From contig NZ_VTKZ01000010.1 in NCBI RefSeq assembly GCF_020514115.1, positions 1 through 64,000 on the forward strand: a stretch of 64,000 nucleotides of DNA, written 5' to 3'. Shown here in pieces: positions 20,234 through 64,000 of this stretch (position 1 is the stretch's first letter; each line of letters starts with the position of its first letter). Below the pieces are notes generated by a model, which did not search any database, was not told the DNA's origin, and saw only the letters and a program-made list of their open reading frames with translations. The stretch comes from Synechococcus sp. MU1642 (GTDB lineage Bacteria > Cyanobacteriota > Cyanobacteriia > PCC-6307 > Cyanobiaceae). The translations under genes were made by a program, and so were the position numbers.

Positions 20234-20255
20234 TAAGCGATTGAAATTTGCTCAA

Positions 20256-20326
20256 GCGGGTGACCGGATTCGAACCGGCGACGTTCAGCTTGGGAAGCTG
20301 ACATTCTACCACTGAATTACACCCGC
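20256..20326 (-). tRNA. tRNA-Gly (anticodon CCC)
   Basis: 71-base cloverleaf on the minus strand: acceptor GCGGGTG/CACCCGC, D-arm with AGTGGTA, anticodon stem TCAGC/GCTGA with loop TTCCCAA (anticodon CCC, reading GGG), T-arm GCCGG-TTCGAAT-CCGGT. The 3' CCA is not encoded, as usual in cyanobacteria. Confidence 0.95.
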
Positions 20327-47926: not shown

Positions 47927-48052
47927 GGACTTTTATCCAATGCGACATGATCTCATTTTGCCGCTTCACGAGCCTGAACAAGCATGATTTAAGTTGTAAA
48001 TAAGCCATCTATATTTTCAATCGATAGTCATTATCGCCAATATCTAAATTTT

Positions 48053-48874
48053 TTAAATCAAGTCGTTGATGATGTTTGAGTATTTTTGAAAGCGCTCGGG
48101 CCCAGCTCCTGCAAGATGCAAAAAGTGGCTTTTATTGAAGATTTGACGAATAAAATCATCCTCATAGTTTGTGTTGTTTATTGCATCTAATAATGCATTG
48201 GTAATTTTTTTGGTTTTTGGTGAGCTCCACGCGCAGCTCCAGGGAAAAGCAAGTCTGTTGTATTTAGGATCAAGTATTTGGTATTGACTTGCTTGAATTG
48301 CAAGGTTGACTGGAATCATTTCGCCCCAAAGTGTGTCAGCGCCACCTTCCTCCCAAAAGGCATAAATATCCTGAAAAAATTTTGAATGTATTTTTGGCGA
48401 GAAGCCAACTAATCCAGTATTGAATAAAGGTCGTTTTTGACTGTTGAAACCCCAGCTTTCAAAATAGCCTCTTTTCTCCCAAGAAATATTATTGTTGGAC
48501 GCTTTGTACGCCTCAAGCCAGCTTTGTTTAATGGCATATGGCTCTTGTGAGTATGGGCTGCCCGTCTCGATCGTGACGCTTATTTTAGTTGTATCTATGT
48601 TTTTGGTTGGATCTGGAGCCTTTGGATTGATGAAAATATCTGCGTCGATCCAGTAGCAATAGTCAAAGCCTTGTGACTGGGTGCTTGCCATCGCTAAAAG
48701 TTTTTGCCAAGCATGCGATCTATGTTTTGCACGATCCGAGGTATCTAGTTCATTCTTAAAGCGAATTATTGAATAGTTATTTTTTGTCGCCCATTTGCCC
48801 CATGAGCTTGAGCAAGAATGTTCCCAAATCTCATTGTAATGCTGAGTTGTAAGTGTTATCAGTGCTTTTTTCAT
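48053..48874 (-). CDS. Putative glycosyltransferase, GMA12/MNN10-like (GT34 type)
   Basis: 273 residues. KKALITLTTQHYNEIWEHSC at the N-terminus, SHAWQKLLAMAS, DxD-type motif YCYWIDADIFINP, FNTGLVGFSP, GEMIPVNLAIQA and HLAGAGPERFQKY at the end resemble galactosyl/mannosyl transferases of the GMA12/MNN10 group; the sugar is unknown. The gene is much more AT-rich than lysC and holA and uses codons such as aat, ttt and ata. Both flanks (47927-48052, 48875-49026) are AT-rich too. I infer a transferred single-gene islet acting on cell-surface glycans. Confidence 0.7.
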   Translation of the reverse strand: MKKALITLTTQHYNEIWEHSCSSSWGKWATKNNYSIIRFKNELDTSDRAKHRSHAWQKLLAMASTQSQGFDYCYWIDADIFINPKAPDPTKNIDTTKISVTIETGSPYSQEPYAIKQSWLEAYKASNNNISWEKRGYFESWGFNSQKRPLFNTGLVGFSPKIHSKFFQDIYAFWEEGGADTLWGEMIPVNLAIQASQYQILDPKYNRLAFPWSCAWSSPKTKKITNALLDAINNTNYEDDFIRQIFNKSHFLHLAGAGPERFQKYSNIINDLI

Positions 48875-49026
48875 GATTCGAGTAAGACGTTTTTTGGATT
48901 AGTGGATAAAGAATTGTTCGGCTTTAGTCGTAGATTGTTGCCGCCGACTATTGAATACGTTGATATTCGACTGTTTTGAAACTTGGCTTCTTGTTCTGCA
49001 GTCTTAGCGGCTGGTTGGTCGCTCTT

Positions 49027-49992
49027 TTATTGAAGTAGCCCGTCGCGGAAAGCATCGCCTGGCTGGACGCCGCGTTTTAGCTGTGCTTCTACTGTAAGTA
49101 TTCGGTCGAGAAGTGAGAGGAGGCGCTTGGGCGGGCGACCCTGCAGCTGCTTGCGCATCACATATATGCGTTTGGGATTGCTGATCCCAGCGGCCTTGGC
49201 GATCACCGCCACATCCCGTTCCCCTTGCTGTTCCAGCAGGCTCACCCAGAGCCAGCCCCGGATCTGACCGGTGAGGGTGGCCACGATGCGCAGGGTTGGT
49301 TCCCCCGCTTCGATTAGGGCATCCCAGCGGGCAATCGCTTCGCCGGGGTCGCCCTCCAGCAACGCATCGCCCACGGCCAGGGCGTTGGTAGAGCGTCCTT
49401 CCACCAGCTCCTGCACTCGAGCGGCGGAAATCCTGGTGTCCCGCAGGGATAGCTTGCGCAGTTCCGATTCGAGCCTTGCGCTGTCGGTACCGATGGCCTC
49501 TACCAGCGCATCGATGGCATTCGGCTCGACCTTTAGGCCCAGAGCCTCCGCCGTGCGTTGCACCAGCTGGCGCTGGCCGTTTCCATCCCAGGCCGCGGGC
49601 AGCGGGAAGCTCTGTTCTTGATCGACCCCGTTTTTGATCCGTTTCTGCAGTGCTTTGGTGGTGCGCAGGCGACCATCCGGTTTGGCTGGGTTCACCAGCA
49701 CCAGGTGGCTGGTGTCGGGGATGAGCTCGAGGGCAGCTTCAAACCGGTCGGCCAGTTCACTGGGGCAGCCATTGCAGAACGGACTGCGCTGCAGCAGCAC
49801 CAGCCGTTCGCCAATGGCGAAAGGAGGGGTACGCGCCTCCTCGAGGGCCTGCAGGGCCTGACCAGCATCCGCCCCATCCAGGCGGCTGAGGTTGAGGCTG
49901 CTCCAGCTGGGGTCGACAACCTGGCCGATCAGAGCATCGATGGCCCGGTTACGCGCAGCGGCGTCATCACCCCAGAGCAGATGGATCGGCAT
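49027..49992 (-). CDS. holA: DNA polymerase III delta subunit
   Basis: Clamp-loader wrench that opens the sliding clamp. 321 residues from ATG 49992: IHLLWGDDAAARNRAIDALI, LDGADAGQALQALEEARTPP, RLVLLQRSPFCNGCPSELAD, then domains with LESELRKLSLRDTRISAARV and IYVMRKQLQGRPPKRLLSLL. It lacks Walker motifs as expected for delta. Divergent from cobH, whose start lies within a few bases. Confidence 0.92.
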   Translation of the reverse strand: MPIHLLWGDDAAARNRAIDALIGQVVDPSWSSLNLSRLDGADAGQALQALEEARTPPFAIGERLVLLQRSPFCNGCPSELADRFEAALELIPDTSHLVLVNPAKPDGRLRTTKALQKRIKNGVDQEQSFPLPAAWDGNGQRQLVQRTAEALGLKVEPNAIDALVEAIGTDSARLESELRKLSLRDTRISAARVQELVEGRSTNALAVGDALLEGDPGEAIARWDALIEAGEPTLRIVATLTGQIRGWLWVSLLEQQGERDVAVIAKAAGISNPKRIYVMRKQLQGRPPKRLLSLLDRILTVEAQLKRGVQPGDAFRDGLLQ

Positions 49993-49998
49993 GGGTCG

Positions 49999-50649
49999 AT
50001 GATGGCGTGGATGGCCCAGGACCACCCGATCTTCACTGAAAGCATCCGGCGGATCCGTGCGGCGCTGGGGGATACGGGCCTGCCGCCGCTGCAACAGAAG
50101 GTGCTGGAACGGCTTGTGCACAGCAGCGGGGATCTCTCCCTGGGAACACAGCTGCGGTTCAGCGAGGGGGTCTGTGAGCAGGGTTTAGAAGCGCTCAAGA
50201 AGGGGGCGCCGATCCTGACGGACACTGCGATGGCCGCGGCTGCGGTGGCCCCGATGGCACAGCGCACCCTCGGCAGCGCCGTGTACACGGTGCTGGACTG
50301 GGCACCTGAGACGGTGCCGTCGGGTTCAACGCGTACGGCGGCGGGAATGCAGAAGGCCTGGCGCAGGCTTGCTGTGGTGTCACCTGCTCCCGTGGTGTTG
50401 ATCGGCAGTGCGCCGACCGCCCTCGAGGTGCTGTTGCAGCAGGTGGCCGCTGGAGCCCCGGCACCCAGCCTGGTGATCGGCATGCCGGTGGGTTTTGTGG
50501 GGGTGGCGGAAAGCAAGAAGCATCTGGCGGACAGCGGCCTGCCCCAGATCCGTTTGGAAGGCAGCAGGGGTGGGGCCGGCCTGGTGGCTGCGGCGGTCAA
50601 TGCTTTGCTTCGCGCTGCTGCAGCATCAGCTCCCCCCCTTTCCAGCTGA
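49999..50649 (+). CDS. cobH: Precorrin-8X methylmutase
   Basis: Moves a methyl group from C11 to C12 to form (cobalt-)hydrogenobyrinate in cobalamin synthesis (CobH/CbiC). 216 residues from ATG 49999; ATG 50002 or 50011 are equally reasonable. DHPIFTESIRRIRAALG, LVHSSGDLSLGTQLRFSEG (catalytic His), APILTDTAMAAAAVAP, NAPTALE-like IGSAPTALEVLL and GMPVGFVGVAESKKHL match the family well. It overlaps the converging tilS by 53 bp. Confidence 0.94.
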   Translation: MMAWMAQDHPIFTESIRRIRAALGDTGLPPLQQKVLERLVHSSGDLSLGTQLRFSEGVCEQGLEALKKGAPILTDTAMAAAAVAPMAQRTLGSAVYTVLDWAPETVPSGSTRTAAGMQKAWRRLAVVSPAPVVLIGSAPTALEVLLQQVAAGAPAPSLVIGMPVGFVGVAESKKHLADSGLPQIRLEGSRGGAGLVAAAVNALLRAAAASAPPLSS

Positions 50650-51601
50650 CTTGCCAGCCCCCGGCAAGATCGGCAGCACCGCCGGAAGCACCCTTTTCAA
50701 GTCTCCGGCTGAGCTCGTCCAGCTGACTAGCCGATAGGGCAGACACTCCTCGATGCTGCAGCCACTGCGCTAGCAGCAGTCGGCGGCTGGCTGGGCTTAA
50801 TGCACCCAGGCCGCGGCGGTCAAGGCCAGCTGGGGTTTGCAGAACCCCCAGGACCATCTCGCTGAGTTCCTTCTGACTGTCCCGCACTTGGGACACTCGT
50901 TCGGCCAGATCACTAAACCGCCCAGTGCAGCCTGGGTGCAACTCTTCCAGTACCGGTAGCACCTCTTGGCGAATCCGGTTGCGGGCGAACTCAGACGATT
51001 GGTTGCTGGGGTCCTTCCAGATGGGCAAGTCCAGCTCCTGGCAGATTTGGAGGGTGTCGTCGCGCTGCAGGTGCAGCAGCGGCCTGCGCAGAAGGGGCCC
51101 TTCTGGACTGAGGGGGCGGACGCTGGGCATAGCCGCCAGGCCAGCTAAGTCGCTGCCGCGGGCCAGCTGAAGCAGCATCGTTTCGGCCCTGTCGCTGGCG
51201 GTGTGGCCTGTCACTACATCGGCGCCTGCTTCGCGGCCCCTTTGTTCCAGTCGTTGGTAGCGCCATTGCCGGGCTTCGGCTTCGCTGGGCACCTGTCCCG
51301 GCGCTGATTGGTCCACTTGTAGGGGAAGCTGCCGCTGCTGGCACCAGGCTTTCAGTTCCGCGGCGATCCGGCTGGAGTCCTCGTGCCAGCCGTGATCGCC
51401 GTGCCACAGGTTCAGGCCCCAGCCATGCAAGGGCGCAAGATCCTGCAGCAATGCCAGCAGGGCCATTGAGTCTTGTCCGCCGGACACCGCCAGCAGAAGG
51501 GAGCTGCCCTGGGGCAGCAGCTGCGGCTGCATCAGCAGGCGCCGATGCAGGCGGTTATGCCAGGACGTCCAGTCCAAGGAGTAGGGGTGCGTTTCCCCCA
51601 C
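50597..51601 (-). CDS. tilS: tRNA(Ile)-lysidine synthase
   Basis: Modifies C34 of tRNA-Ile(CAU) to lysidine so that it reads AUA. 334 residues: P-loop LLLAVSGGQDSMALLALLQD, LNLWHGDHGWHEDS, EAEARQWRYQRLEQ, TGHTASDRAETMLLQLARGS, DPSNQSSEFARNRIRQEVLP. The C-terminal domain is shorter than in E. coli TilS, as in other cyanobacteria. ATG 51601; divergent from ycf23. Confidence 0.94.
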   Translation of the reverse strand: MGETHPYSLDWTSWHNRLHRRLLMQPQLLPQGSSLLLAVSGGQDSMALLALLQDLAPLHGWGLNLWHGDHGWHEDSSRIAAELKAWCQQRQLPLQVDQSAPGQVPSEAEARQWRYQRLEQRGREAGADVVTGHTASDRAETMLLQLARGSDLAGLAAMPSVRPLSPEGPLLRRPLLHLQRDDTLQICQELDLPIWKDPSNQSSEFARNRIRQEVLPVLEELHPGCTGRFSDLAERVSQVRDSQKELSEMVLGVLQTPAGLDRRGLGALSPASRRLLLAQWLQHRGVSALSASQLDELSRRLEKGASGGAADLAGGWQVSWKGGELMLQQREAKH

Positions 51602-51636
51602 GGTGTGAGAATCAGGGCATCGCTGTCCAGTCCCCC

Positions 51637-52395
51637 ATGACCCGTCTTCAGCAGCTGCCCGTTTCTCTGCAGCGCAGCCTTGAGCAGCGCTCTGCGCTCA
51701 AGGTGATCGCTGGCTTGATGAATTTCGATGCCGCCAGTGTGGAGCGGATCGCCCGTGCAGCAGGGCGTGGCGGTGCTGATCTGATCGACGTGGCCTGTGA
51801 CCCTGCTCTGGTGCGTCTGGCGATCGAGGCCTCCGGTGGCGTGACCGTTTGTGTGTCGTCGGTGGAGCCTGATCAGTTTCCCGCTGCGGTTGAAGCCGGT
51901 GCGCTGATGGTGGAGATTGGCAACTACGACGCTTTCTATCCCCAGGGCCGGATCTTTGATGCGGCTGAGGTGCTGGAGCTCACCCGCCGGACCCGCAAAC
52001 TGTTGACCAACGTGGTGTTGAGCGTCACCGTGCCCCACGTGTTGCCTATGGATGAGCAGGAGCAGCTGGCTATCGATCTGGTAACGGCCGGTGCCGATCT
52101 AATCCAGACCGAGGGTGGCACCAGTGCCAAGCCTTTCAGTGCTGGTCACCTGGGCCTGATTGAGAAGGCTGCTCCCACTCTGGCGGCGGCCCACAACATC
52201 AGCCGCGCCGTCGATGTGCCCGTTCTTTGTGCTTCGGGCCTGTCCGCGGTGACTCTGCCGATGGCCATCGCGGCTGGTGCGGCCGGAGTTGGTGTTGGTT
52301 CTGCCGTGAATCGCCTGCAGGACGAGCTGGCGATGGTGGCGGTGGTGCGTGGTTTGCGTGACGCCCTCGGCAGCGCTGTCGCAACCCGTGTCTGA
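51637..52395 (+). CDS. ycf23: DUF561/Ycf23-family TIM-barrel protein
   Basis: 252 residues from ATG 51637. SALKVIAGLMNFDAASVERI, GGADLIDVACDPALVRLAIE, VCVSSVEPDQFPAAVEAGAL, MVEIGNYDAFYPQGRIFDAA and LIQTEGGTSAKPFSAGHLGL are the DUF561/Ycf23 signatures found in cyanobacteria and algal plastids. The barrel resembles phosphate-binding TIM barrels, but no enzyme activity is known to me. It stands between tilS (divergent) and psbZ. Confidence 0.88.
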   Translation: MTRLQQLPVSLQRSLEQRSALKVIAGLMNFDAASVERIARAAGRGGADLIDVACDPALVRLAIEASGGVTVCVSSVEPDQFPAAVEAGALMVEIGNYDAFYPQGRIFDAAEVLELTRRTRKLLTNVVLSVTVPHVLPMDEQEQLAIDLVTAGADLIQTEGGTSAKPFSAGHLGLIEKAAPTLAAAHNISRAVDVPVLCASGLSAVTLPMAIAAGAAGVGVGSAVNRLQDELAMVAVVRGLRDALGSAVATRV

Positions 52396-52459
52396 ACCTG
52401 AATGATCCGCTGAGCGGAGGTCTCTTCCCCTTCATGGTGTGAAGAGTGCTTCGCTCGCT

Positions 52460-52479
52460 CGCGGGAGCATCATCCCGCG
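52460..52479. promoter_or_regulatory. Hairpin upstream of psbZ
   Basis: CGCGGGA-GCATCA-TCCCGCG, a perfect 7-bp inverted repeat, 30 bp before the psbZ ATG. No T-tail, so not a typical terminator of ycf23. It may be a leader stem of the psbZ mRNA or an operator. Confidence 0.35.
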
Positions 52480-52509
52480 TGTGAAAATCGACCTCTGACT
52501 TCCAGCTCC

Positions 52510-52698
52510 ATGCAGTTCATCAACACGCTGACCGTTCTGGCCCTGGTGGTGGCGTCCTTTGCCTTGATCGTTGCAGTGCCGGTGCTGTACGCCTCCAGTG
52601 AGGACAGTGGCCGTTCCAACCGTCTGATCCTGCTGGGCAGTGCTGTGTGGGTGGCGCTCGTGCTGCTCAACTGGGGTGTGAGCTTTTTTGTCGTCTGA
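52510..52698 (+). CDS. psbZ: Photosystem II protein PsbZ
   Basis: 62-residue, two-helix thylakoid protein of the photosystem II core edge. INTLTVLALVVASFALIVAV PVLYAS, polar loop SSEDSGRSNR, and LILLGSAVWVALVLLNWGVS are the typical PsbZ (Ycf9) helices and loop. ATG preceded by TTCCAGCTCC, no strong Shine-Dalgarno. Confidence 0.95.
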   Translation: MQFINTLTVLALVVASFALIVAVPVLYASSEDSGRSNRLILLGSAVWVALVLLNWGVSFFVV

Positions 52699-52723
52699 GC
52701 TCAGCTCTCAGCGCGAACCTGGC

Positions 52724-52757
52724 GGGTGCCACGATGGCTAAGATTCAGTCGGCACCC
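52724..52757. promoter_or_regulatory. Inverted repeat around ribH -10 region
   Basis: GGGTGCC (52724-52730) and GGCACCC (52751-52757) are perfect inverted repeats with a 20-base spacer that holds a possible -10, TAAGAT (52739-52744). The right arm ends 2 bases before the ribH ATG. It fits an operator or a stem that hides the start codon; it is not an FMN riboswitch, which is far longer. Confidence 0.4.
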
Positions 52758-52759
52758 CA

Positions 52760-53236
52760 ATGGCCACGTTCGAAGGACGTTTCTCTGATGCAGCTGGGCT
52801 GCACGTCGGTGTCGTAGTGGCCCGTTTCAATGATCTCGTCACCGCCAAGCTGCTGAGCGGTTGTCTCGATTGCCTTAAGCGCCACGGCGTAGATGTGTCG
52901 GAGACCAGCTCACAGCTCGATGTGGCCTGGGTGCCTGGGTCGTTTGAACTGCCGATCGTGGCCCAGCAGATGGCCCGCTCCGGTCAGTACCAGGTGCTGA
53001 TCACCCTCGGGGCGGTGATCCGCGGGGACACGCCCCATTTCGATGTGGTGGTGGCGGAGGCCAGCAAGGGCATTGCGGCTGTGGCTCGCGACACTGCTGT
53101 GCCCGTGATCTTCGGGGTGTTGACCACTGACACGATGCAGCAGGCACTGGAGCGGGCGGGCATCAAGAGCAACCTCGGCTGGAGCTACGGGCTGGAGGCC
53201 TTGGAGATGGGAAGTCTGATGAAGGCTTTGCCCTGA
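52760..53236 (+). CDS. ribH: 6,7-dimethyl-8-ribityllumazine synthase
   Basis: Penultimate enzyme of riboflavin synthesis. 158 residues: [58 protein letters not shown] (catalytic His), [34 protein letters not shown]. Icosahedral-type length. Confidence 0.97.
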
Positions 53237-53243
53237 CTTCGGG

Positions 53244-53815
53244 ATGTCATGGAACGGATGTTTGCTGCCACTGGCGTTCCCGCTGAGCGTGTTGGTGATT
53301 TGCACCTGGCGTTTGGCAGTACTCGACCTTGTTCCTTTACCGCAGCCAGCGTTATCGGGTTCCGCTCAAGCCCAAGGCCCTGACTACAGCCAAGCTCCTC
53401 CTGGGACCTATCCCAATTGCCAACAGGATCCGGCCTTGGCTGATTTGCTCCTTGTCGAAGGCCGTCGACTGGGAGTCACTCTGAAGGCTGCACAACCAGA
53501 GCTACCAGGAAAGGACGCCACCTATCGGGCCGAATCTGGTCGGTTGGGTTCAATCACTATCAAGCAACGACCTATGAGCCCTGCAGTTGCTGTGTGTTGA
53601 TCAACCATGAATTCATTCATGTGCTGCAGCATCTTCAGGGGGATTTGCGGGGAGTTCCGCTTCTGGGCTGGACGACTGAGCATCCCGATCAGATCCCGCA
53701 GGAGTCAGAGGCCTATGGGCATCAGCAGCGGGCGAGGTATGTGCTGTGCTTGCTGAAGCAGACGGAGAGGCCGAGTAGATTTTGGCTGATTTTGTGCCGG
53801 ACTTGGATGTTGTGA
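53244..53815 (+). pseudogene. Frameshifted secreted HExxH metalloprotease-like gene
   Basis: The first frame (53244-53600) has an N-terminal signal-like segment (CLLPLAFPLSVLVICTW), then PDYSQAPPGTYPNCQQDPAL and LVEGRRLGVTLKAA, and reaches a stop at 53598-53600. A shifted frame, open through the same place, continues TYEPCSCCVLINHEFIHVLQ, with HEFIH as a zinc HExxH motif, and ESEAYGHQ downstream as a possible third ligand, to a stop at 53813-53815. A one-base loss near 53540-53590 explains both halves. I recall intact homologues of this layout in marine Synechococcus. Without a slippery sequence programmed shifting is unlikely. Confidence 0.7.
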
Positions 53816-54020
53816 TGAGCCTTGAGATTCTTTAGGTTTTTGAGGATTCAGCTTGCTGGGGTTAGCATTTTCGTGCCCTCTCGGACAACAGTTGTTTTGC
53901 ATCCAATACTGCACTGATAGGTCATTTGAATGGGAAAAGCCTTTTGTTTTGGCAAAAGTTGATCGTTAATACTTGCGTTCGGAATGGGTCAAATTCTCTC
54001 AATGCTGGTGTGGATGAGTA

Positions 54021-54809
54021 ATGGTTGATTTTCAGGGTTTCTGGCTCAATCTCGATCGATGTGAGGAGCGTGCGATCTGGGTGCAGAGTCGTTTGGCCGA
54101 ATTGCATTTGTCGGACCAATATCTACGCATTTCTGGAGTGGAAGGAGACGCTAAGGAGGCTGCTTCCCGAGGTTTGAAACCAGGAGAGTGGGGTGCTTGG
54201 CAGGGCTGGATTCGAATGCTCGATCAAGCGAGTCGATCGTCTTCTCCTTTTGTGCATTTGATGGAAGATGATGTCGACATCTCTGATTTGTTTCTCAAGC
54301 TTGTTCAGGACGATCTTCTGCTTGGGCTATTGGGTCGGCAGAAAGTTGTGTGTACAGATGCTTACGTCTCTCCGCGTCAATGCTTAGAGTTGCTTAATGC
54401 TCTGGCTGAAGCCAAGCGTCATGGCCGTCAATGGTTGGAAATAAGTTGTGGATTGAGGATTCCTTGCCTTAATTCGATTTTGTTGACTCCCGATGTTGCT
54501 CGACGGCTCTGTCGAGATCTCCAGGCGGCTGTGATAACTGATGATTCATTGCACGCAGTTGATGTTGAACTTGCTGAAGTGTTAAACGACTGGAGCACGA
54601 TTGCTCCGTTTGTAACCAGTCCAAAAATTAATCTTGCTTCGGTGGGTGCAACGCGTGCAGAGACAGAGGATGCTTTGTTGTTCAGTCGTGATGCATTAAC
54701 GCTTTTAAGACGTGCTCTGTTTTGTAAGGCTGATGATCCCGATTTAAAGCTAGGCCTCGCTGACTTGATGATTCAACTCGCAGACGTTGGCGTTCTTCAG
54801 CCGTATTGA
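54021..54809 (+). CDS. Putative GT25-like (LPS-type) glycosyltransferase
   Basis: 262 residues. FWLNLDRCEERAIWVQSRLA, GLKPGEWGAWQGWIRMLDQA and FVHLMEDDVDIS (EDDV as the DxD-like site) match the GT25 LPS glycosyltransferase pattern. The second half (SCGLRIPCLNSILLTPDVAR; HAVDVELAEVLNDWSTIAPF) is usual for the fold. The C-terminal helix (CKADDPDLKLGLADLMIQLA) is TPR-like. Base composition is moderately AT-richer than mutS and ribH. The 205 bp upstream are AT-rich without features. Likely modifies a surface glycan. Confidence 0.7.
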   Translation: MVDFQGFWLNLDRCEERAIWVQSRLAELHLSDQYLRISGVEGDAKEAASRGLKPGEWGAWQGWIRMLDQASRSSSPFVHLMEDDVDISDLFLKLVQDDLLLGLLGRQKVVCTDAYVSPRQCLELLNALAEAKRHGRQWLEISCGLRIPCLNSILLTPDVARRLCRDLQAAVITDDSLHAVDVELAEVLNDWSTIAPFVTSPKINLASVGATRAETEDALLFSRDALTLLRRALFCKADDPDLKLGLADLMIQLADVGVLQPY

Positions 54810-54821
54810 TTTTCCTTCGGC

Positions 54822-57533
54822 TCATGCCGCTAGTTGATCCAGCACCTCACGGGCCCTTTGCACCACGGGCTTGGGAACGCCGGCCAGGCGTGCTGCTTCG
54901 ATGCCGTAGCTGCGGCTGGCGCCGCCGGCCAGCACCTGATGGAGGAAGACCAGATCCTCACCGGTTTCCTCCACCAGCACCTGGAAGTTGGCGACGTTTT
55001 CGCGTTCCGAGGCAAGGTTGTTGAGCTCGTGATAATGAGTCGCGAACACCGTGCGGCTGCCCAGATCGCCTGCCAGGTGCTCGCTCACGGCCCAGGCGAT
55101 CGAGAGGCCATCGAAGGTGGCGGTGCCCCGCCCGATCTCATCTAGCAGCACCAGGGAACGGTCGCTGGCGTGGTGAAGGATGTTGGCGGTTTCGGCCATC
55201 TCCACCATGAACGTGGACTGGCCGGCGGCTAGATCATCCACGGCACCTACCCGGGTGAAGATCCGATCGGCGATGCCGACAGTGGCGGATCGGGCCGGCA
55301 CCCAGCTGCCGATCTGAGCCATCAACTGGATCAGGCCGATCTGGCGCAGATAGCAGCTCTTGCCACTGGCGTTGGGGCCTGTGAGAACCACCAGATCGGT
55401 GCCTTCACCGAGCTGCACATCATTGGGGGTGAAGCTGGTTTCCACCAGCCGTTGCTCCACTACCGGATGGCGGCTGGCCTCCAGCTGCAACGCGCGGCCG
55501 TCGGTGATGGTCGGTGCGCAGTAGCCACCGCTGGCGGCCACATCGGCCAGGCCGGTGAGGGCATCGAGTGCCGCAACGGCGCGGGCCGCCTTGCGGATCG
55601 GGGCGGCCATGCCCCCAACCTGCTCGCGCACCTGACAGAACAGCTCGTATTCCCGCTGGCAAGCCCGGGCCCGCATCTGGAAGATGCGGCCCTCCCGCTC
55701 CTTGAGATCAGGGGTGATGAAGCGTTCCTCGTTGGCCAGGGTCTGGCGCCGGATCCAGTGGTCCGGCACGGCGGTGGCCTTGGCTTTGCTCACCGCCAGA
55801 AAATAGCCGAAGGTGCGGTGGTGCTGCAGCTTCAAGGTGCTGATGCCACTGCGTTGGCGTTCCTGCTGCTCCTGGTGGCTGAGCCAGGCGTCCTGATCGT
55901 CCAGCTGGTTGCGCAGTCCATCCAGCAGCGGGTCGACGCCGTCGTGGATGAGATCTCCCTCTGAGAGGGAAAGCGGTGGTGTCTCGACCAGCTTGTGGCG
56001 AATCGTCCGGGCAAGCTCCGCCAGGGCTGGATCGGGGCTGAGGAGCAGCTGCAACCACTCCGGCCCTGCGTTGATAGCAGCTTCCAGTCGAGTGGTGAGC
56101 TGGGGCAGCCTTTCCAGGCTATCGGCGATGGCCACCAGATCGCGGGCACCGGCATGGCCCGCTCCGGCTCTGCCGGCCAGCCGCTCTAGGTCGCCCATCG
56201 GTCGTAGAAGCTGGCGGATCGCCAGCCGCAGGCTGCGTGCGCCCACAAGGCTGCTCACTAGATCCTGGCGCTGCTGAATGGCCTGGCGGTCCATCAACGG
56301 TGCTTCCAGCCAGCGTCGCAGGCAACGGCCGCCCATGGCGGTGAGGGTGCGATCGATCGCCCAGAGCAATGACCCTTGCAATCGGTTGTCGCGCTGGGTG
56401 GCGGTGAGCTCGAGGTTGCGGCGGGTCTGGGCATCCAGCACCAGGGCATCGCCGCGGTGCACGATCGCCGGCACTTCCAGGGGAATGCGGCTGTCCTCCT
56501 CCAGGGGTTGGGTCTCCTGCATGTAGCGCAGCAGGCCGCCGAGGGCCTGCAGGGCCAGGGGATGTTCCGGCAGGCCCAGGCCATCGAGGCTGCTGAGGCC
56601 GTAGTGCTGCTGCAGGGTGCGCTCCGCTTCCGCTGGGCTGAAGGGGGTGCTGGCCATGGGGGTGAGCCGTAGCCGTTCAGGGCACCAGGCCGGTCGCTCA
56701 GCATCGAGGGTGGCGGCCCAGAGCAGTTCGGAGGCCTCCTGCTGGTCCAGCTGCTGGTGCAGGGCGCTGCTCTCTTCGCGCTGCATCACCTGCACCTCGC
56801 CGGTGCTCACGTCGGCGCTGGCCAGGCCCCAGCGAAGGGGCTGCTTGCCCTGGGCCGGCTCCACCACCACCGCCGCCAGCCAGTTGTTGCGGCGGGCGCT
56901 GAGCATGCCCTCCTCCAGCACCGTGCCGGGGGTCAGAACCCGGGTGATGTCCCGCTTGAGCAGGGCTCCCTTGGTAGGGGTGGTTTCGAGTTGATCGCAG
57001 AGGGCCACGCTGTAGCCCTGCTTGATTAGTTCGGCGCAATAGCGCTCAGCGGAGTGGTGGGGGATGCCTGCCATCGGCACCCGGCCGATGGCCTTGCCGC
57101 CTTCCTTGCCGGTGAGGGCGAGTTCCAAGACGCGGGAGAGTTCGATGGCGTCTTCGAAGAAGCACTCGAAGAAGTCGCCCAGGCGGTAGAGCAGTACCCG
57201 CTCGGGATGGGTGGCCTTGAGCTCCACGTAATGGCGCAGCATCGGTGTGAGCTGCAGCGGATCCAATTGGCTGTGGTGGGCCCAGGCCGGTTCGTCGCTG
57301 TTGGGTTCGGAATCGGTTGCACCTGACGATTCGCAGCTGGTTTTGTGTGACGTGGCCTGCCGCATTCGGGGCCGGGCAGCGGCATCGGCTCCAAGTTCGT
57401 CGTCGCTGAGATCGTGGCTGGCCGCCTCGGGTTCGCTGGCGGTTGCCGCTGATGGTGGGGCTGCCGGTTCAGGGGCGCCGAACAGATTGCCCTGCAGTGC
57501 GTCGTTCTGGGGCTGGGACGCGGACCGCGGCAT
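54822..57533 (-). CDS. mutS: DNA mismatch repair protein MutS
   Basis: Mismatch-recognition ATPase. 903 residues from ATG 57533. A 95-residue low-complexity N-terminal extension precedes the normal MutS start [20 protein letters not shown]. The mismatch-binding FxE motif appears as [14 protein letters not shown]. Connector and lever domains follow, then Walker [41 protein letters not shown], Walker [21 protein letters not shown] and [10 protein letters not shown]. It ends 13 bp from the converging GT25-like gene. Upstream in-frame codons to 57779 overlap the GNAT gene and are not used. Confidence 0.95.
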
Positions 57534-57586
57534 CGGCTGCACTCTCGGATCCGGATCGTACCGAGTTTCTGGGGTTGCTCCCTGGC

Positions 57587-58042
57587 TCAGCGACGCAGCA
57601 CCATCAGCTGCTGGGGGTTCGCATCCTGGAAGCCCAGTTGCCGGTAGAAGCCGGCACTCTTGGTGGTCATCAGATACACCCGTTCCACGCCCACCACCGG
57701 CGGGGTGTGAAGCAGTTCTTCGATCACCCGACGGCCCAAGCCATGACCCTGCAGATCGCCGGCCACAACGATGTCCCACAGCACCGCCCGGCTGAAACCG
57801 TCGGAGGTGGCCCGGCCGAAGCCCACCAGCCGCTTGCCGCGCCAGAGGCTCACCACGGCGTCGCTACCGGCGAGTAGGCGCCGCAGCTGGGAAAAGCTTC
57901 GACCGCGTGCCCAGAAGGCATGGCGATCGAACAGCCGTTGCAGTTTGAGCAGCGCCCGGCTGGGGCGGAGGTCCGGTCCGAGGCCAAGCCAGCGCAGGCC
58001 GGGGGCACCAGGGGCATGGTGAACCAGCCGGATCGGGGTCAC
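57587..58042 (-). CDS. GNAT-family N-acetyltransferase (Ycf52-like)
   Basis: 151 residues. The acetyl-CoA motif A is [19 protein letters not shown], motif [21 protein letters not shown]; an aromatic helix [20 protein letters not shown] and strand [20 protein letters not shown] precede it. The pattern DxxVxxxLQGxGLG and TTxxxGFYRxLGF is like the plastid/cyanobacterial Ycf52/NSI group of protein or small-molecule acetyltransferases; substrate not predictable. Upstream of mutS, same strand, 53 bp. Confidence 0.85.
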
Positions 58043-58103
58043 GGGTCGGTGTGCCTCAGCACTTCATCTTGCTCCCCGGTTGCAGCAACGCCAAGTCCTC
58101 TGA

Positions 58104-58994
58104 TCAAGGAGCCAGGGCAGCTTTCAGAAGTGCTTTGAGATCCCAATAGGGCGGAGGTTCGACAGGAATGCTTTTGAGTTTGTTGGGCTTCGCGAACAGC
58201 CTCTGCACCAAGCTTTCCAGTTCCTCGATGGAGTTGGTCCAAAACAAATCGGAACGATTGATCAGTGGGCAGTTGTTTCCCAGCAGGCTTCGATCACCAA
58301 AGATCACCTGGGGTACTCCAGCGGCCATCACTTCATACAAGCGGTGGTTGAGGTCTTGGTTCAAGGGCACATTGAGGACCAAGGCGTATTGGGAGTAGAG
58401 CCGAGCTGCTTCATCAGCGTTTGCCGTGGTGGCGTGACGGAACGGCACCTGTTGTCGCTTGATGAGGGCTTCTACCAGCTCACGGCGGCGGGGGTGATGG
58501 GGGCCAAGGCTGCCAACGTGCAGCAGTTCTAGCCTTGGTCTCAGGCTTGGTGTTGCGGCTGGGTAGCGAAAGAAGGTTGGGGCCAAGCAGCGCACCGGCA
58601 TGGGTAAGCGCTTTTGCACGTTTTCCAGCAGCGCCGGATTGAAGGTAAGCAGCACCGCATCGTGAGGTTCATCGACGCTGTATTGCTTCAGGGTTCCGAT
58701 TGGATCGGGGCCGTGATGGAGATCCCCGCAGGCGAGCAGACGTGGTCCGGGCCACTGGCGGATGCCGTGCATCGGGATAGTGCGGAGCAGAAACGGATCG
58801 GTGTACTGAATCAGTACTCCCCTTGAGGGCAAACCCCGGCGCTTCAGAGCGTTTTGCAGCCCAGTCACCGACATTTCCATCAGCCGCAAACTCTCAGGCC
58901 CATCGGCGATCTGGGGCCCCACCTGGATCAGCCCCGGTTGTTGCCAGAGCGGCTGGTAGGCCCCGTGATGGATCAGCAGGGTGGGCGTTCGCAT
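58104..58994 (-). CDS. Glycosyltransferase-like protein (GT1/CgeB type)
   Basis: 296 residues from ATG 58994. [20 protein letters not shown] at the start, [60 protein letters not shown] and the C-terminal GT-B motif [20 protein letters not shown]. The last matches the CgeB/'glycosyl transferases group 1' pattern in which Glu of YEVMA contacts the sugar nucleotide. Acceptor unknown. GC content is like the core. Divergent from uvrB, 52 bp apart. Confidence 0.75.
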
Positions 58995-59046
58995 GGCATT
59001 GCTCGTCCCAGCGATAATTGCGCTTCGTCGTTTGGCCTCGCAACCC

Positions 59047-61095
59047 ATGCCCGCCTACGACCTCACGGCGCCTTACACCCCCAAAGGCGACCAGCCGACG
59101 GCGATCAAGCAGCTGGTGCAAGGTGTGAACGATGGGCAGCGTTATCAGACTCTGCTTGGGGCGACGGGTACCGGCAAGACGTTCACGATGGCCAACGTCA
59201 TCGCCCAGACCGGCCGCCCGGCGCTGGTACTGGCTCACAACAAAACCCTGGCGGCGCAGCTCTGCAATGAACTTCGGGAGTTCTTCCCAGAGAACGCCGT
59301 CGAATACTTCATCTCTTATTACGACTACTACCAACCGGAGGCTTACGTCCCGGTGAGCGACACCTACATCGCCAAGACGGCTTCGATCAACGAAGAGATC
59401 GACATGCTGCGCCACTCGGCGACGCGATCGCTGTTTGAACGTCGCGACGTGATAGTAGTCGCCTCGATCAGCTGCATCTACGGCCTGGGCATTCCCAGTG
59501 AATACCTCAAGGCAGCCGTGAAGTTCGAGGTAGGGGAGACCCTCAACATCCGCGGTCAGTTGCGGGAGTTGGTGAACAACCAGTACAGCCGCAACGATAC
59601 CGAGATCGCCCGTGGCCGTTTTCGCATGAAGGGGGATGTGCTGGAGATCGGCCCAGCCTATGAAGATCGGCTTGTGCGGATCGAGCTGTTCGGCGATGAG
59701 GTGGAGGCGATTCGCTATGTCGACCCCACCACCGGCGAGATCCTCCAGAGCATGGATGCGGTCAATATTTATCCGGCCAAGCATTTCGTCACTCCGAAGG
59801 ATCGTCTGGATTCCGCCATCAGCGCGATCCGCTCGGAACTGCGGGAGCGGCTGGATGTGCTCAATAGCGAAGGCAAGTTGCTGGAAGCCCAGCGGTTGGA
59901 GCAGCGCACTAAGTACGACCTGGAAATGCTGGGGCAGGTGGGCTATTGCAATGGGGTTGAGAATTACGCCCGCCACTTGGCCGGCCGCGAGGAAGGCACT
60001 CCTCCGGAGTGCCTGATCGATTACTTCCCTGACGACTGGCTGCTGATCGTGGATGAGAGCCACGTCACCTGCTCGCAGCTGCAGGCGATGTACAACGGCG
60101 ACCAGGCCCGCAAGAAGGTGCTGATTGAGCATGGCTTCCGCCTGCCAAGTGCTGCCGACAATCGCCCGCTGAAGGGTGCAGAGTTTTGGGAGAAAGCCCG
60201 CCAGACGGTGTTTGTTTCAGCGACCCCTGGCAACTGGGAGATTGAGGTGAGTGGTGGCGAAGTGGCTGAGCAGGTAATCCGTCCGACGGGAGTGCTCGAT
60301 CCAGTTGTTGAGGTGCGGCCCACTTCAGGCCAGGTGGACGATTTACTTGGAGAGATCCGTGATCGGGCTTTGAAGAACCAGCGGGTGTTGGTTACGACGT
60401 TGACTAAGCGGATGGCTGAAGACCTTACCGATTACTTGGCTGAAAACAAGGTGAGGGTCCGCTATCTGCACTCTGAGATTCACTCGATTGAACGTATTGA
60501 AATAATTCAGGACCTTCGCTTAGGCGAATATGACGTGCTGGTGGGGGTGAACCTTTTGCGAGAGGGACTGGATTTGCCTGAAGTAAGCCTCGTGGCCATT
60601 TTGGATGCCGATAAAGAGGGCTTCTTACGCGCGGAACGTTCGTTGATTCAGACTATTGGTCGGGCCGCTCGTCATGTGCAAGGTATGGCGCTTCTTTATG
60701 CCGACAACATGACTGAATCGATGGTTAAGGCTATCTCCGAGACCGAACGCCGTCGGGCGATTCAGCAGGCTCACAATGAGAGGCACGGCGTTGTACCTAC
60801 CGCAGCTGGGAAGAAAGCTAACAATTCAATACTTAGCTTCTTAGAGCTTTCCCGAAAGCTAAAGCAAGACGGTCCAGATGCAGATTTAGTTGAAGTTGTC
60901 GGAAAAGCTGCCCAGGCTCTTGAAGATGATGCTGATGTTGGTTTAGCCCTGGAGGCGCTTCCGGAGCTAATCAATCAGCTTGAGACTAAGATGAAGGACG
61001 CTGCTAAAAAGCTTGATTTTGAAGAAGCCGCAAGCCTTCGAGATCGTGTAAAAACACTTAGACAGAAGTTGCTGCATAATAGTCAAAAAATTTGA
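59047..61095 (+). CDS. uvrB: Excinuclease ABC subunit B
   Basis: DNA-damage-loading helicase of nucleotide excision repair. 682 residues from ATG 59047: [20 protein letters not shown], Walker [21 protein letters not shown], beta-hairpin [42 protein letters not shown], motifs [34 protein letters not shown] and [19 protein letters not shown]. The UVR domain for UvrC is [20 protein letters not shown]. Composition and codon usage change from about 60330 onward toward AT-rich codons (tta, aat, gat, ctt), though the protein stays conserved. No LexA-like box in the 52-bp upstream region. Confidence 0.97.
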
Positions 61096-61300
61096 GTCAA
61101 TGTTGATTTAGCCTGGTTGGTAAACATGGTAGCGGTTGCGCCATCATTATCATCTTGCGTGTCAAGGCACGAGAAAATATGTTGGGACAGATTTATACAT
61201 GTTTATTATATGCTGAAACGAATGATCAATAATATCCAAATATAGTACTAAATGGCTAATATATCTAAGCAATCAGAAATAGTTTACAAATTCTAAAAAG

Positions 61301-62077
61301 TTAGTTTTGATATACTGAAGAAGGATTATTGCCTATTTTGCTTCCATGCGAGAATGGAGAATTAATAATACTAAGCCCCGGCAGGCCGAGCACTTTTAAT
61401 GCAACTTGGAATTGCATATCAATCGGTAGTGAATATTCTTTCATTGAATTATATAATTGATAGGCCGTCTCGGGAAATATCGCATAGGCCATTAAGGTCC
61501 TAGTAATAGCGATTGAACGCATAGAGAACTTCAAATTTCCAGAATTAAAAGCTCGCTTTTCGTTGCAATTTACAGGTATAAATTCGTCCGTAAGATCGAA
61601 GAAAATATGTTGTTTTTTCCAATCATTAATAAAATTAATTAACTCAAAGAAAAGATTTTCATTTGCAACAATTGCATCATCTTCCAAGACTATACATGGA
61701 GATTGACTATTGGATATCATTTTTAGTGCATAAAGATGTCTTCTTGCAATTGAATGCTCGCTTTTGGTTAATTGCCTGGCGGGAAAAGCTGAGGAGGGAC
61801 TAATATTTTCAATGTAATTAAGATTATGATTATTCGCTGATTGATCGATTGATGCATATATATTTTGCAAGAAAAAATCCCAACCTAATAAAATATCACT
61901 ATCCCAATTGTCAGGATAATATCGACTATGGACACATCCGCCAAGCTTGGCATCACTCATGCATATAATCTGAACACTTGATATGAGGCCTGATGAGATT
62001 GACGAGTTTATGTATGAAACTTGATTCACCAAACGATGGTTAACAAGCTGTGGACACGTTACGATAATGAGATTCAT
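61301..62077 (-). CDS. Putative GT25-like glycosyltransferase
   Basis: 258 residues from ATG 62077 (an ATG at 62140 in frame would run into the next gene's 5' end). LIIVTCPQLVNHRLVNQVSY, LTKSEHSIARRHLYALKMIS (typical GT25 helix that precedes the DxD) and CIVLEDDAIVANENLF are clear. The C-terminal IDMQFQVALKVLGLPGLSII and a final SPFSHGS fit the same family. The DNA is strongly AT-rich, unlike genes left of uvrB. Starts lie only 9 bp from the divergent GT10-like gene. First gene of the surface-glycan island. Confidence 0.72.
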   Translation of the reverse strand: MNLIIVTCPQLVNHRLVNQVSYINSSISSGLISSVQIICMSDAKLGGCVHSRYYPDNWDSDILLGWDFFLQNIYASIDQSANNHNLNYIENISPSSAFPARQLTKSEHSIARRHLYALKMISNSQSPCIVLEDDAIVANENLFFELINFINDWKKQHIFFDLTDEFIPVNCNEKRAFNSGNLKFSMRSIAITRTLMAYAIFPETAYQLYNSMKEYSLPIDMQFQVALKVLGLPGLSIINSPFSHGSKIGNNPSSVYQN

Positions 62078-62086
62078 GATCAGAAT

Positions 62087-63145
62087 ATGTTTGGTAGGCA
62101 ATGGTTTGGACCTGGAAGCCAACTCGCACTTGATGACCAAGCCCTGCTATTTGAAAAAATACTTCGAAAGAGGGAATTCAGCAAGGCTATAGAAGTTGCA
62201 AATTTACGTATACAGAACAATGAGGCGATAGGCTATAAGGGCTACTGGCTGCGCCAACGTTCAAGAGCGATAAGGCTACAAGGAAGATCTATAAATAGAT
62301 CTGTCATAACACTGGCATTTGATGGATTTTGGAATGGATTTAATTCTCACAATAACGAGATACTTAATTTATTAAAACATTGCGCATATTTAATAGGATC
62401 ACGAATAGAAATAGATTCAGAAGATCCAGACATTTTAATTTTTTCATGCTTCGGTGATGTTTCATTCAATAAATACAAGAACTCAACACGTATTTTATAT
62501 CTGGGCGAAAATGTGCGACCCGACTATAGTCAATCCGATTATAGCTTAAGTTTCGATATCTCCGAATATTGTGGGCGAAATATATATCTTCCTCTTTGGC
62601 TTCTAAGGTCATCTAAATACGCAATAAATACACAAGATTATAAGATGTATAATTCTACCGAGCTGGAAACACCAAGATTGGTAAATAATGCCGGAAATAC
62701 TGTGGCTTATATAGGGAATAACTCTACACCAAATAGAATCGAGGCAATAAATGAACTTGCAAAAAATGGTATTATTGTGGATTGCTTTGGTTCACAGACA
62801 CGTCCGGTCACAGATAAGATTGAGACTTTACAAAACTATCAATATTCATTGTGCTTTGAAAATACGTATACTCCTGGTTATGTAACTGAAAAATTAATTG
62901 ACTCTTTTATTGGTGGGACGAGACCAATTTATTGGGGAGGTGCTCCACATAGTATTTTCAACCTGAGTGAGCATTTTGTATGCGATCCATATCAAGATAT
63001 GAAAACTAATATTAAAGACTTTCTTGTTTGGAAGCAGTACAATTCAGGTAAGTACCTGCCTCAATTATTAAAAACAGGAGCTTTTGAGAAAACAGAATCT
63101 TATCTCACACTAAAGCTAAGTAAAATCATGATGGATCTCTTTTGA
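62087..63145 (+). CDS. Fucosyltransferase-like glycosyltransferase (GT10)
   Basis: 352 residues from ATG 62087. The N-terminal 80 residues are helical and TPR-like (LFEKILRKREFSKAIEVANL; AIGYKGYWLRQRSRAIRLQG). Then ITLAFDGFWNGFNSHNNEIL, ILIFSCFGDVSFNKYKNSTR, and ILYLGENVRPDYSQSDYSLS. The diagnostic alpha-1,3/4-fucosyltransferase motif is YSLCFENTYTPGYVTEKLID, followed by SFIGGTRPIYWGGAP. GDP-fucose is the usual donor in GT10; acceptor unknown. AT-rich. In-frame ATGs upstream at 62021 and 62036 would overlap the divergent gene. Confidence 0.82.
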   Translation: MFGRQWFGPGSQLALDDQALLFEKILRKREFSKAIEVANLRIQNNEAIGYKGYWLRQRSRAIRLQGRSINRSVITLAFDGFWNGFNSHNNEILNLLKHCAYLIGSRIEIDSEDPDILIFSCFGDVSFNKYKNSTRILYLGENVRPDYSQSDYSLSFDISEYCGRNIYLPLWLLRSSKYAINTQDYKMYNSTELETPRLVNNAGNTVAYIGNNSTPNRIEAINELAKNGIIVDCFGSQTRPVTDKIETLQNYQYSLCFENTYTPGYVTEKLIDSFIGGTRPIYWGGAPHSIFNLSEHFVCDPYQDMKTNIKDFLVWKQYNSGKYLPQLLKTGAFEKTESYLTLKLSKIMMDLF

Positions 63146-63478
63146 GGCACTAGTATATTGCCGATAGAATCCTTAATAGATGTCTTAGTCATTTTTGTGA
63201 GATATTTGATATTAATGTACCTCACTAGCTTTGACTAATATTAATAACGTTGACAGGATTGCTTGTTGTAAGGCCTAATATTGATAACCAATGATATTTA
63301 ATTTTTTAAAGTGAATAAATAGGGGGTATGCATGATGAGTAATCAACATAGTAAATGATTAGTCCTTGCAATCGGACAAAACTTTTACTGGTTTTCCATT
63401 TTCATAAGTTATTCACAAAATAAACAAAAGAATGAAATTTTAGTCAGCAGTTAGTTTCTTATCAGCAGTTAATGAGAG
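63146..63478. other. AT-rich intergenic region, 333 bp
   Basis: No gene seen. Contains direct repeats CAGCAGTTA (twice at about 63443-63475) and TAATATTAATAAC / TAATATTGATAAC (about 63235-63290). Some short T/A runs could serve as promoters or terminators, but none is convincing. Confidence 0.4.
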
Positions 63479-64000
63479 TCAATCAAGAAAGACTGTATTT
63501 TGATTGATATTCCCAAGGATATCATTTTTGATTTCTTCATTGTACGCTCCAGCTTTTAAAATCACCAGTGGGTCTTCCTTATTAGACAATATCTTAGGGG
63601 AAGCAACCTGTAGACCTGTACCGTATAGACGTTTACCCTGTTTAGCGACATCATTATCTAATACACATTTGATCCGATTTGTATCGAGACCACTTGCTAT
63701 CAGATATTGAGAAAATATATGAGCACCAAATAAATAGAGTTCTTTCCTGCTGTCAAATTTTGCAATTTTTGCATTAAGTCTGTCTATGAGATTCTTATGA
63801 TAATCTATATACTCTAAATACAGTTTTATGTTCGCTTCATATAGATTTGAAGGTAAATTTGTCTGCAATAGTGTGTCATCACGTTCACATGCGTAAAAAA
63901 TACTATGATCCTTTAAAAAGTATTCACGCTTGAGAATTTTAAATTTATTTTGAGAGAGGAGAAATTCAATGTATGGCTCAGTCAGAAAAATAGTATGCTC
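63479..64000 (-). CDS. Class I SAM methyltransferase with C-methyltransferase tail (5' end outside window)
   Basis: The minus-strand frame is open from the window edge to the stop at 63479 (about 174 residues). HTIFLTEPYIEFLLSQNKFK and LKDHSIFYACERDD resemble the end of a SAM-methyltransferase domain. After a helical linker (EYIDYHKNLIDRLNAKIAKF) comes a Rossmann-like C-terminal part: KELYLFGAHIFSQYLIASGL, IKCVLDNDVAKQGKRLYGTG, LQVASPKIL, VILKAGAYNEEIKNDI. This is the C-methyltransferase C-terminal domain seen in sugar C-methyltransferases. I infer a role in making a branched or methylated nucleotide sugar for surface glycans. An internal TTG at 63868 is not the start. Confidence 0.75.
   Translation of the reverse strand, partial: EHTIFLTEPYIEFLLSQNKFKILKREYFLKDHSIFYACERDDTLLQTNLPSNLYEANIKLYLEYIDYHKNLIDRLNAKIAKFDSRKELYLFGAHIFSQYLIASGLDTNRIKCVLDNDVAKQGKRLYGTGLQVASPKILSNKEDPLVILKAGAYNEEIKNDILGNINQNTVFLD

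What the first reader, a model, noticed from the sequence alone, without database searches (positions are those of the whole stretch)
60330..61095. Composition break inside uvrB marks the island border
The first two thirds of uvrB use core GC-rich codons (gcc, ctg, cgg). The last third drifts to tta, aat, gat, ctt, aag while the protein motifs stay intact, and the DNA beyond is strongly AT-rich. This suggests the island was exchanged by recombination within conserved uvrB sequence, carrying a foreign 3' end, or that mutation bias near the island spread inward.
Basis: partly seen in the sequence, partly recalled or inferred. Interest (0 to 1): 0.6.

Follow-up and report, generated by a model that had tools for sequence, protein, structure and literature searches.

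The report
AT-ward erosion of uvrB beside island
In this marine Synechococcus-like bacterium the end of a conserved DNA-repair gene that touches an AT-rich variable island has drifted silently toward A and T while its protein stayed native, and similar slopes facing AT-rich DNA occur in other genomes and in a second gene, which suggests that islands locally weaken a force that keeps core genes GC-rich.

Summary
The composition break is real. uvrB is window 59047-61095; its third-position GC falls from about 0.79 to 0.50 after codon 366 (about 60145) and to about 0.35 at the end; the DNA beyond is about 35% GC. A slope fits better than one step. The 'foreign 3' end' reading is not supported: the 3' third encodes a genus-type UvrB, the excess silent changes are nearly all GC-to-AT and graded (.15 .13 .20 .34 .47 .59), and a second steeply falling genome (G005) shares AT sites with it only at the chance rate. 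AT drift near the island holds up by comparison: in 24 genus genomes the fall tracks AT-richness downstream (rho -0.80), and in secA, a second gene at the same hotspot, the slope follows the side with AT-rich DNA (rho -0.68, 19 genomes). It is not universal: several AT-flanked ends show little or nothing. Best explanation: an island without homology hinders homologous recombination into neighbouring core DNA and so removes a GC-favouring bias. Erosion is shown; the recombination step is inferred. Ten literature searches listed no report of such border gradients.

The parts
59047..61095 (+). uvrB, excinuclease ABC subunit B, 682 aa, core gene
   Evidence: Translation; Pfam UvrB_inter, Helicase_C, UvrB, UVR; full or near-full in 24 of 34 genus genomes
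60145..61095 (+). AT-eroded part of uvrB: silent GC-to-AT changes increasing toward the stop codon
   Evidence: GC3 step/slope; third-position GC-to-AT fraction .34 .47 .59 against .13-.20 in the 5' part
61096..64000 (.). AT-rich island (about 35% GC), continuing to the contig end at C7:66470
   Evidence: different genes lie here in most of the relatives compared
61301..62140 (-). glycosyltransferase family 25 gene in the island
   Evidence: Pfam Glyco_transf_25, E 1e-7
62084..63145 (+). alpha-1,3-fucosyltransferase-like (GT10) gene in the island
   Evidence: Pfam FucT_N 2.9e-18 and Glyco_transf_10 5.5e-9
63479..64000 (-). open-ended ORF with a C-methyltransferase C-terminal domain
   Evidence: Pfam Methyltransf_14, E 5e-5, at its cut-off

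Best explanation
The 3' third of uvrB is native to the genus and has been eroded toward A+T in place because it touches a variable AT-rich island. Shown: the protein stays genus-type; silent GC-to-AT changes rise toward the island; the erosion in G000 and in G005 shares no more sites than chance; and in secA the slope tends to follow the side on which AT-rich DNA lies. Inferred: since most other cells carry different DNA at this place, recombination tracts cannot run through the border, so the last few hundred bases of the core gene receive little homologous exchange. In a genus whose core is kept GC-rich by GC-biased repair of recombination intermediates (or by selection that recombination helps), the isolated edge drifts toward an AT-rich mutational equilibrium, further the longer the island has stood there.
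For: Drop against downstream GC: rho -0.80 in 24 genus genomes, -0.60 in 40. GC-to-AT fraction graded .15 .13 .20 .34 .47 .59, G/C exchanges only .04 .05 .02 .08 .08 .02. G000 and G005 share AT sites at the chance rate (24 seen, 24.4 expected; 7 and 7.2) although both fall steeply. secA: G007, AT-rich at its 5' side, falls along the gene (.36 .39 .28 .17 .20 .21 .13 .22); G001 and G020, AT-rich at the 3' side, rise (p .0095 and .0035); flank asymmetry against AT asymmetry rho -0.68, p .0012, in the 19 of 22 complete copies with both flanks held, and -0.72, p .0024, in the 15 genus genomes among them. Gene ends other than uvrB: 13 AT-flanked against 130 GC-flanked, mean contrast .055 and -.001, p .016. 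In eroded stretches GC-to-AT transversions (4.8-fold) rise at least as much as transitions (3.6-fold) and more than G/C exchanges (1.9-fold). Recombining genes are GC-richer, most at GC3, in 11 of the 14 bacterial groups kept (PMC4450053, passages); gene gain is proposed to interfere with conversion at flanking loci (PMC6879757, passages).
Against: Recombination was not measured. Not every AT-flanked uvrB is eroded: the drop is small in G010 (.030) and absent in the g57 genome G274; G013 shows no excess at its very end. In one search the 16 AT-flanked ends other than uvrB differ from 596 controls only at p .057. For genes other than uvrB the pooled AT excess falls only shallowly with distance (.124 to .062) and is as high next to flanks of intermediate GC, so part of it is a whole-gene effect. 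In secA the AT-flanked copies of G010, G015 and G000 have no significant slope (p .15.10.095), while G314, without AT-rich flank, has one (p .025). lysC beside the small AT-rich insert at 48.0-48.9 kb shows no erosion; holA on the other side deviates by -.10. Only one independent pair stood on starred branches, too few for a sign test. The 3' tree on all codon positions pairs G000 with G005 (97, with a composition warning). The prediction written beforehand for the far border in G000 could not be tested as stated, since secA lies on another contig and not next to this island.
Confidence: 0.5

Rival explanations
1. Import: a homologous recombination event with its crossover near codon 366 brought in the island together with a uvrB 3' end from an unsampled, AT-richer lineage.
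For: Core genes flanking hotspots can serve as homology arms (recalled). The fall is fairly sharp at codon 360-370 (83 to 60 percent); a single step fits far better than no change. The 3' part is about equally distant from all 39 other genomes, as an unsampled donor would give; a 3' protein tree with G000 outside the other 23 genus rows is not rejected (p-AU .45).
Against: A slope fits better than one step; the 3' protein falls in the genus branch (97); the lower-GC genomes G008 and G266 are no nearer (third-position identity 42.6 and 42.0); only AT-directed changes are in marked excess; GC3 of .35 lies below the mean uvrB GC3 of every one of the 40 genomes; secA slopes follow the AT-rich side. 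Import would still need another lineage in which the erosion arose.
Confidence: 0.22
2. Local mutation bias: DNA near the AT-rich island is mutated toward A+T more often (for example by different nucleoid packing, transcription or repair), with no part for recombination.
For: Gives the same graded, AT-only pattern and dependence on side.
Against: Transitions and transversions from G/C both rise, unlike a deamination-type process; the effect is absent at several AT-flanked ends; I know of no mechanism confined to a few hundred bases beside an island (recalled, not searched).
Confidence: 0.15
3. Relaxed selection on codon usage or on silent GC at the border, from poorer efficacy of selection where recombination is low, without GC-biased gene conversion.
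For: In the inner set of 17 genus genomes, private amino-acid changes are more numerous in the six AT-flanked ones (3' part p .0095, 5' part p .027); G000 has 9 in the 3' part and 1 in the 5' part.
Against: The 5' part has more too, so this is not specific to the border; the ratio between the parts does not differ between the groups (p .45), nor between G000 and the 11 others (p .65). Codon preference in highly expressed genes was not tested.
Confidence: 0.1
4. Chance, or an ordinary decline of GC3 toward the end of uvrB.
For: A mild fall in the last bin also occurs without an AT-rich neighbour (68 in G007, 68 in G258, 63 in G012).
Against: G000 has the largest drop of 40 genomes; 0 of 500 permutations reach the step; 0 of 596 control gene ends deviate by -0.25 or more, while 3 of 23 AT-flanked ends do, all uvrB.
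Confidence: 0.03

Closest known systems
Recombination barriers spreading from insertions (Vetsigian and Goldenfeld, 'propagating fronts'; [quoted passage not shown]
   Same: Divergence of conserved DNA increases near gained genes because homology is interrupted (idea stated in PMC6879757, passages, whose reference list names both; the original papers are recalled, not read)
   Different: Those works, as far as recalled, concern overall divergence; here the visible mark is a directional GC-to-AT gradient inside core genes
GC-biased gene conversion in bacteria (Lassalle et al. 2015, PMC4450053)
   Same: Less recombination goes with lower GC, strongest at GC3 (passages)
   Different: Shown there between whole genes; here a gradient within a gene beside an island. 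[quoted passage not shown]
Hypervariable genomic islands of marine Synechococcus (Dufresne et al. 2008, PMC2441476)
   Same: Islands of odd composition between blocks of core genes (passages)
   Different: A word search of its text found no 'uvrB', 'secA' or 'flank'; border gradients are not in the passages seen

Membership tests
Import of a foreign gene end by homologous recombination (mosaic gene) | The two parts of the gene have different, supported phylogenetic placements | tested here: not met
   Both protein parts put G000 in a branch of all 24 genus rows (3' 97 starred, 5' 85 not starred); holding 19 inner genus rows together is not rejected by either part (p-AU .73 and .77 on codon positions 1+2). 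Resolution inside the genus is poor. Against: the all-position 3' tree joins G000 and G005 (97, composition warning)
Import of a foreign gene end by homologous recombination (mosaic gene) | A sharp breakpoint | tested here: inconclusive
   Slope better than one step by 3.8 lnL, two steps better still with two more parameters; in G005 step and slope are about equal
Recombination-barrier front beside an insertion | Excess change in core DNA declining with distance from the non-homologous segment | tested here: met
   uvrB: pooled AT excess .195 .057 .075 .040 .053 .021 -.028 -.012 with distance in 7 AT-flanked copies, -.015 to .025 in 37 GC-flanked ones; secA slopes by side. Shallow for other genes (.124 to .062)
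Recombination-barrier front beside an insertion | Reduced recombination rate toward the insertion | not testable with these tools
   Only one genome per species is held
GC-biased gene conversion (its local loss) | GC-to-AT changes raised, transitions and transversions alike, and G/C exchanges less so | tested here: met
   3.6-fold, 4.8-fold and 1.9-fold; the seven eroded stretches were chosen for erosion and control counts reuse five genomes, so the p-values there are rough. Local AT mutation bias would pass this test too
GC-biased gene conversion (its local loss) | Frequency spectrum: AT-to-GC variants favoured in recombining DNA | not testable with these tools
   Needs population data

The most novel reading that the evidence does not exclude
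Composition gradients in core genes beside islands are fossils of recombination-barrier fronts: each island isolates its flanks, GC-biased recombination stops there, and the length and depth of the AT slope record how long the island has held its place. This would give a single-genome clock for island residence and within-gene evidence that recombination keeps cyanobacterial core genes GC-rich.
Probability: 0.35. Interest if true: 0.75.

Novelty: new variant of a known kind. Interest (0 to 1): 0.52.

Why it matters
Whether GC-biased recombination shapes bacterial base composition is disputed. A gene that is half inside and half outside an island's shadow is its own control: same protein, same cell, same expression, different neighbour. 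If the slope reflects lost recombination, island borders become natural experiments for GC-biased conversion and for the theory that gene gain spreads sequence divergence into flanking core DNA. In practice it also warns that AT-rich tails of core genes beside islands should not be read automatically as transferred DNA.

Tried and rejected
Foreign donor from a Prochlorococcus-like AT-rich lineage: rejected, since the 3' protein falls in the genus branch (97; 59 rows). A shared AT-rich 3' end passed between G000 and G005: rejected, site sharing is at the chance rate, although the all-position 3' tree joins them (97), which I take for composition attraction. A virus or mobile carrier with a matching uvrB end: one scan of viral contigs gave 7 loci, best 75% protein identity. 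RNA or tRNA landmark at the border: only a tRNA-Gly at 20255-20326 in the window. The single genome-contig scan (80 best of 587 kept) gave 84% at best and mostly distant organisms; records near the window's genome may be left out there. A first, coarser test of gene ends without uvrB gave a weak signal (rho .14, p .017; 3' ends .21, 5' ends .03).

Errors of mine that were corrected: minus-strand loci were read on the wrong strand (redone); genome G109 was read on the wrong strand (left out); the uvrB family was mislabelled, so its 'not uvrB' table contains uvrB (redone); picked up secA by a motif and missed copies, and some flanks were cut short (redone: rho -0.68 in place of -0.70).

Rows dropped before counts: one search uses 24 of 34 genus genomes (10 lacked a full uvrB) and 16 of the 22 g57 genomes with a listed place; one search leaves out intermediate flanks from its test, copies with far-part AT of .45 or more, and ends with under 50 usable sites near or far; one search finds 27 genomes with secA, 22 complete, 19 of them with both flanks held.

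Novelty searches: (full text of the held library). None of the papers listed reports, by title or start of abstract, within-gene composition slopes beside islands; and 54 more papers matched than were listed. Passages were read in PMC4450053, PMC2441476, PMC7522525 and PMC6879757 only.

Full report
What is there. The window lies in a 2.12 Mb genome of a marine Synechococcus-like cyanobacterium (contig C7, 66,470 bases; the organism is inferred from gene content and relatives, no record names it). uvrB occupies 59047-61095 on the plus strand and encodes an intact UvrB of 682 residues. Immediately after its stop codon the DNA drops to about 35% GC and stays there to the contig end. The first island genes are a family-25 glycosyltransferase and a fucosyltransferase-like gene. 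Contig C21 of the same genome begins with about 4 kb of 35-38% GC, which may be another part of this island (inference).

The observation. GC3 falls along uvrB from about 80% to 35%. The contrast between codons 1-380 and 381-676 is .779 to .514 (Fisher 6e-13), the largest of 40 genomes; no permutation of 500 reached the best step; a plateau with a slope starting near codon 330 fits better than a single step.

Not a foreign gene end, as far as sampled. In the 3' part the protein is 93-98% (codons 381-520) and 83-90% (codons 521-676) identical to the genus members listed, and the tree of the 3' protein puts it in a branch of all 24 genus genomes (97; the 5' part gives the same branch at 85, which repeats without a wrongly read row). 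Whether G000 lies among or just outside the other 23 is not settled (p-AU .45). Third-position identity falls from about 70% against its nearest relatives to 40-50% against everyone. Among third positions where a set of 13 genus genomes has a G or C consensus (60% or more) and the amino acid is kept, the fraction changed to A or T is .15 .13 .20 .34 .47 .59 along the gene, while changes between G and C stay at .02-.08. This is what silent, AT-directed change in place looks like; a tract from a distant lineage should also raise other changes.

A repeated pattern. The locus after uvrB is a hotspot: gene content there differs among most genomes compared, and five other genus genomes carry AT-rich DNA directly after uvrB (G005, G009, G010, G013, G032). 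Across 24 genus genomes the GC3 drop tracks the GC of the first 500 downstream bases (rho -0.80, p 3e-6; without G000 -0.78). G005 shows the second steepest fall, and its AT sites coincide with those of G000 only as often as chance predicts, so the two probably arose separately. These correlations do not correct for relatedness: on the 5' tree the AT-flanked state needs 6 changes, but only one independent pair rests on well-supported branches.

secA, a second border gene. secA borders the same hotspot in several genomes. Where AT-rich DNA lies at its 5' side (G007) the AT excess is at the 5' end; where it lies at the 3' side (G001, G020) the excess rises toward the 3' end; with AT-rich DNA on both sides (G013) the whole gene is affected; G003 and G022, without it, are nearly flat, and G030 is flat but for its last bin (.25). 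Over the 19 copies with both flanks held the asymmetry of the flanks predicts the asymmetry within the gene (rho -0.68, p .0012; 15 genus genomes -0.72, p .0024). Single copies are less clear: of seven with a flank at or below 40% GC (G000, G001, G007, G010, G013, G015, G020), four slope significantly in the expected direction (G001, G007, G013, G020) and three do not reach significance (G000, G010, G015); G314 slopes (p .025) without an AT-rich flank. Pooling gene ends other than uvrB gives 13 AT-flanked ends with mean contrast .055 against -.001 in 130 GC-flanked ends (p .016); a different cut of the same data gave p .057. The AT excess of those genes also has a whole-gene component, and is as high beside flanks of intermediate GC. 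Thus the effect is general in direction but uneven in size.

Where it is missing. The drop is small in G010 and absent in G274, and G013 shows no excess in its last 60 codons. In the window itself, lysC beside a short AT-rich insert at 48.0-48.9 kb is not eroded; holA on its other side deviates mildly (-.10). Differences in the age of the inserts would explain this, but I could not date them. A prediction written down beforehand, that the far border gene in G000 would slope too, could not be tested as stated because secA in this genome is on contig C21, about 50 kb from its AT-rich start; the AT-flanked 3' end of that secA has a raised last bin (.34) but no significant trend (p .26.095).

Mechanism. 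Three forces could produce AT-directed drift confined to the border: lost GC-biased recombination, local mutation bias, or relaxed selection. In seven eroded stretches transversions from G/C to A/T rise 4.8-fold, transitions 3.6-fold and G/C exchanges 1.9-fold against island-free genomes. A relaxed fixation bias raises all GC-to-AT types together; a deamination-type mutator would raise transitions. Two caveats: the eroded copies were selected for erosion, and control counts reuse the same five genomes. [quoted passage not shown] Combining the two gives the explanation preferred here. It is not proven: no recombination rate was measured.

Novelty. The ingredients are known; a composition slope inside core genes beside an island did not appear among the papers listed by the ten library searches (named under Tried and rejected). 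I file it as a new variant of a known kind.

Noticed in passing
48053-48874 (-): A lone AT-rich ORF of 273 aa (36-45% GC) between an aspartokinase-like gene (46121-47926) and a holA-like gene (49027-50121) in otherwise about 58-69% GC DNA; the aspartokinase end beside it shows no erosion, the holA end a mild one, so it may be a recent insertion and a useful control. Gene names are from recall of the sequences.
   Followed up: partly
53750-54749: A second lower-GC stretch (44-52%) with a 262-aa ORF at 54021-54809 without a Pfam match at the default cut-off, between ribH-like and mutS-like genes (names recalled).
   Followed up: no
L202:6701-7720 (-), contig C21 of the same genome: A 339-aa gene (nucleotide-sugar epimerase-like by eye) near the AT-rich start of the contig has GC3 31 52 63 78 60 72 going away from it, another possible border slope; orthologues were not compared.
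   Followed up: partly
46121-61095: Gene order differs from the related genus g57, where uvrB is followed in most genomes seen by the 600-aa (aspartokinase-like), 330-aa (holA-like) and mutS-like genes; here these lie upstream of uvrB, so the region has been rearranged.
   Followed up: partly
L121, L123, L124, L126, L129 and others, downstream of uvrB: The hotspot holds a recurring three-gene set (about 400, 240 and 987 aa; 33-39% GC in G007 and G015, GC-richer in others), possibly a secretion system; not identified.
   Followed up: no
L126 and L189 (G024), upstream of uvrB: G024 has about 20 kb of AT-rich DNA directly upstream of uvrB; the first 60 codons of its uvrB have GC3 75 against 88 and 92 in the next bins, only a mild dip.
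   Followed up: partly
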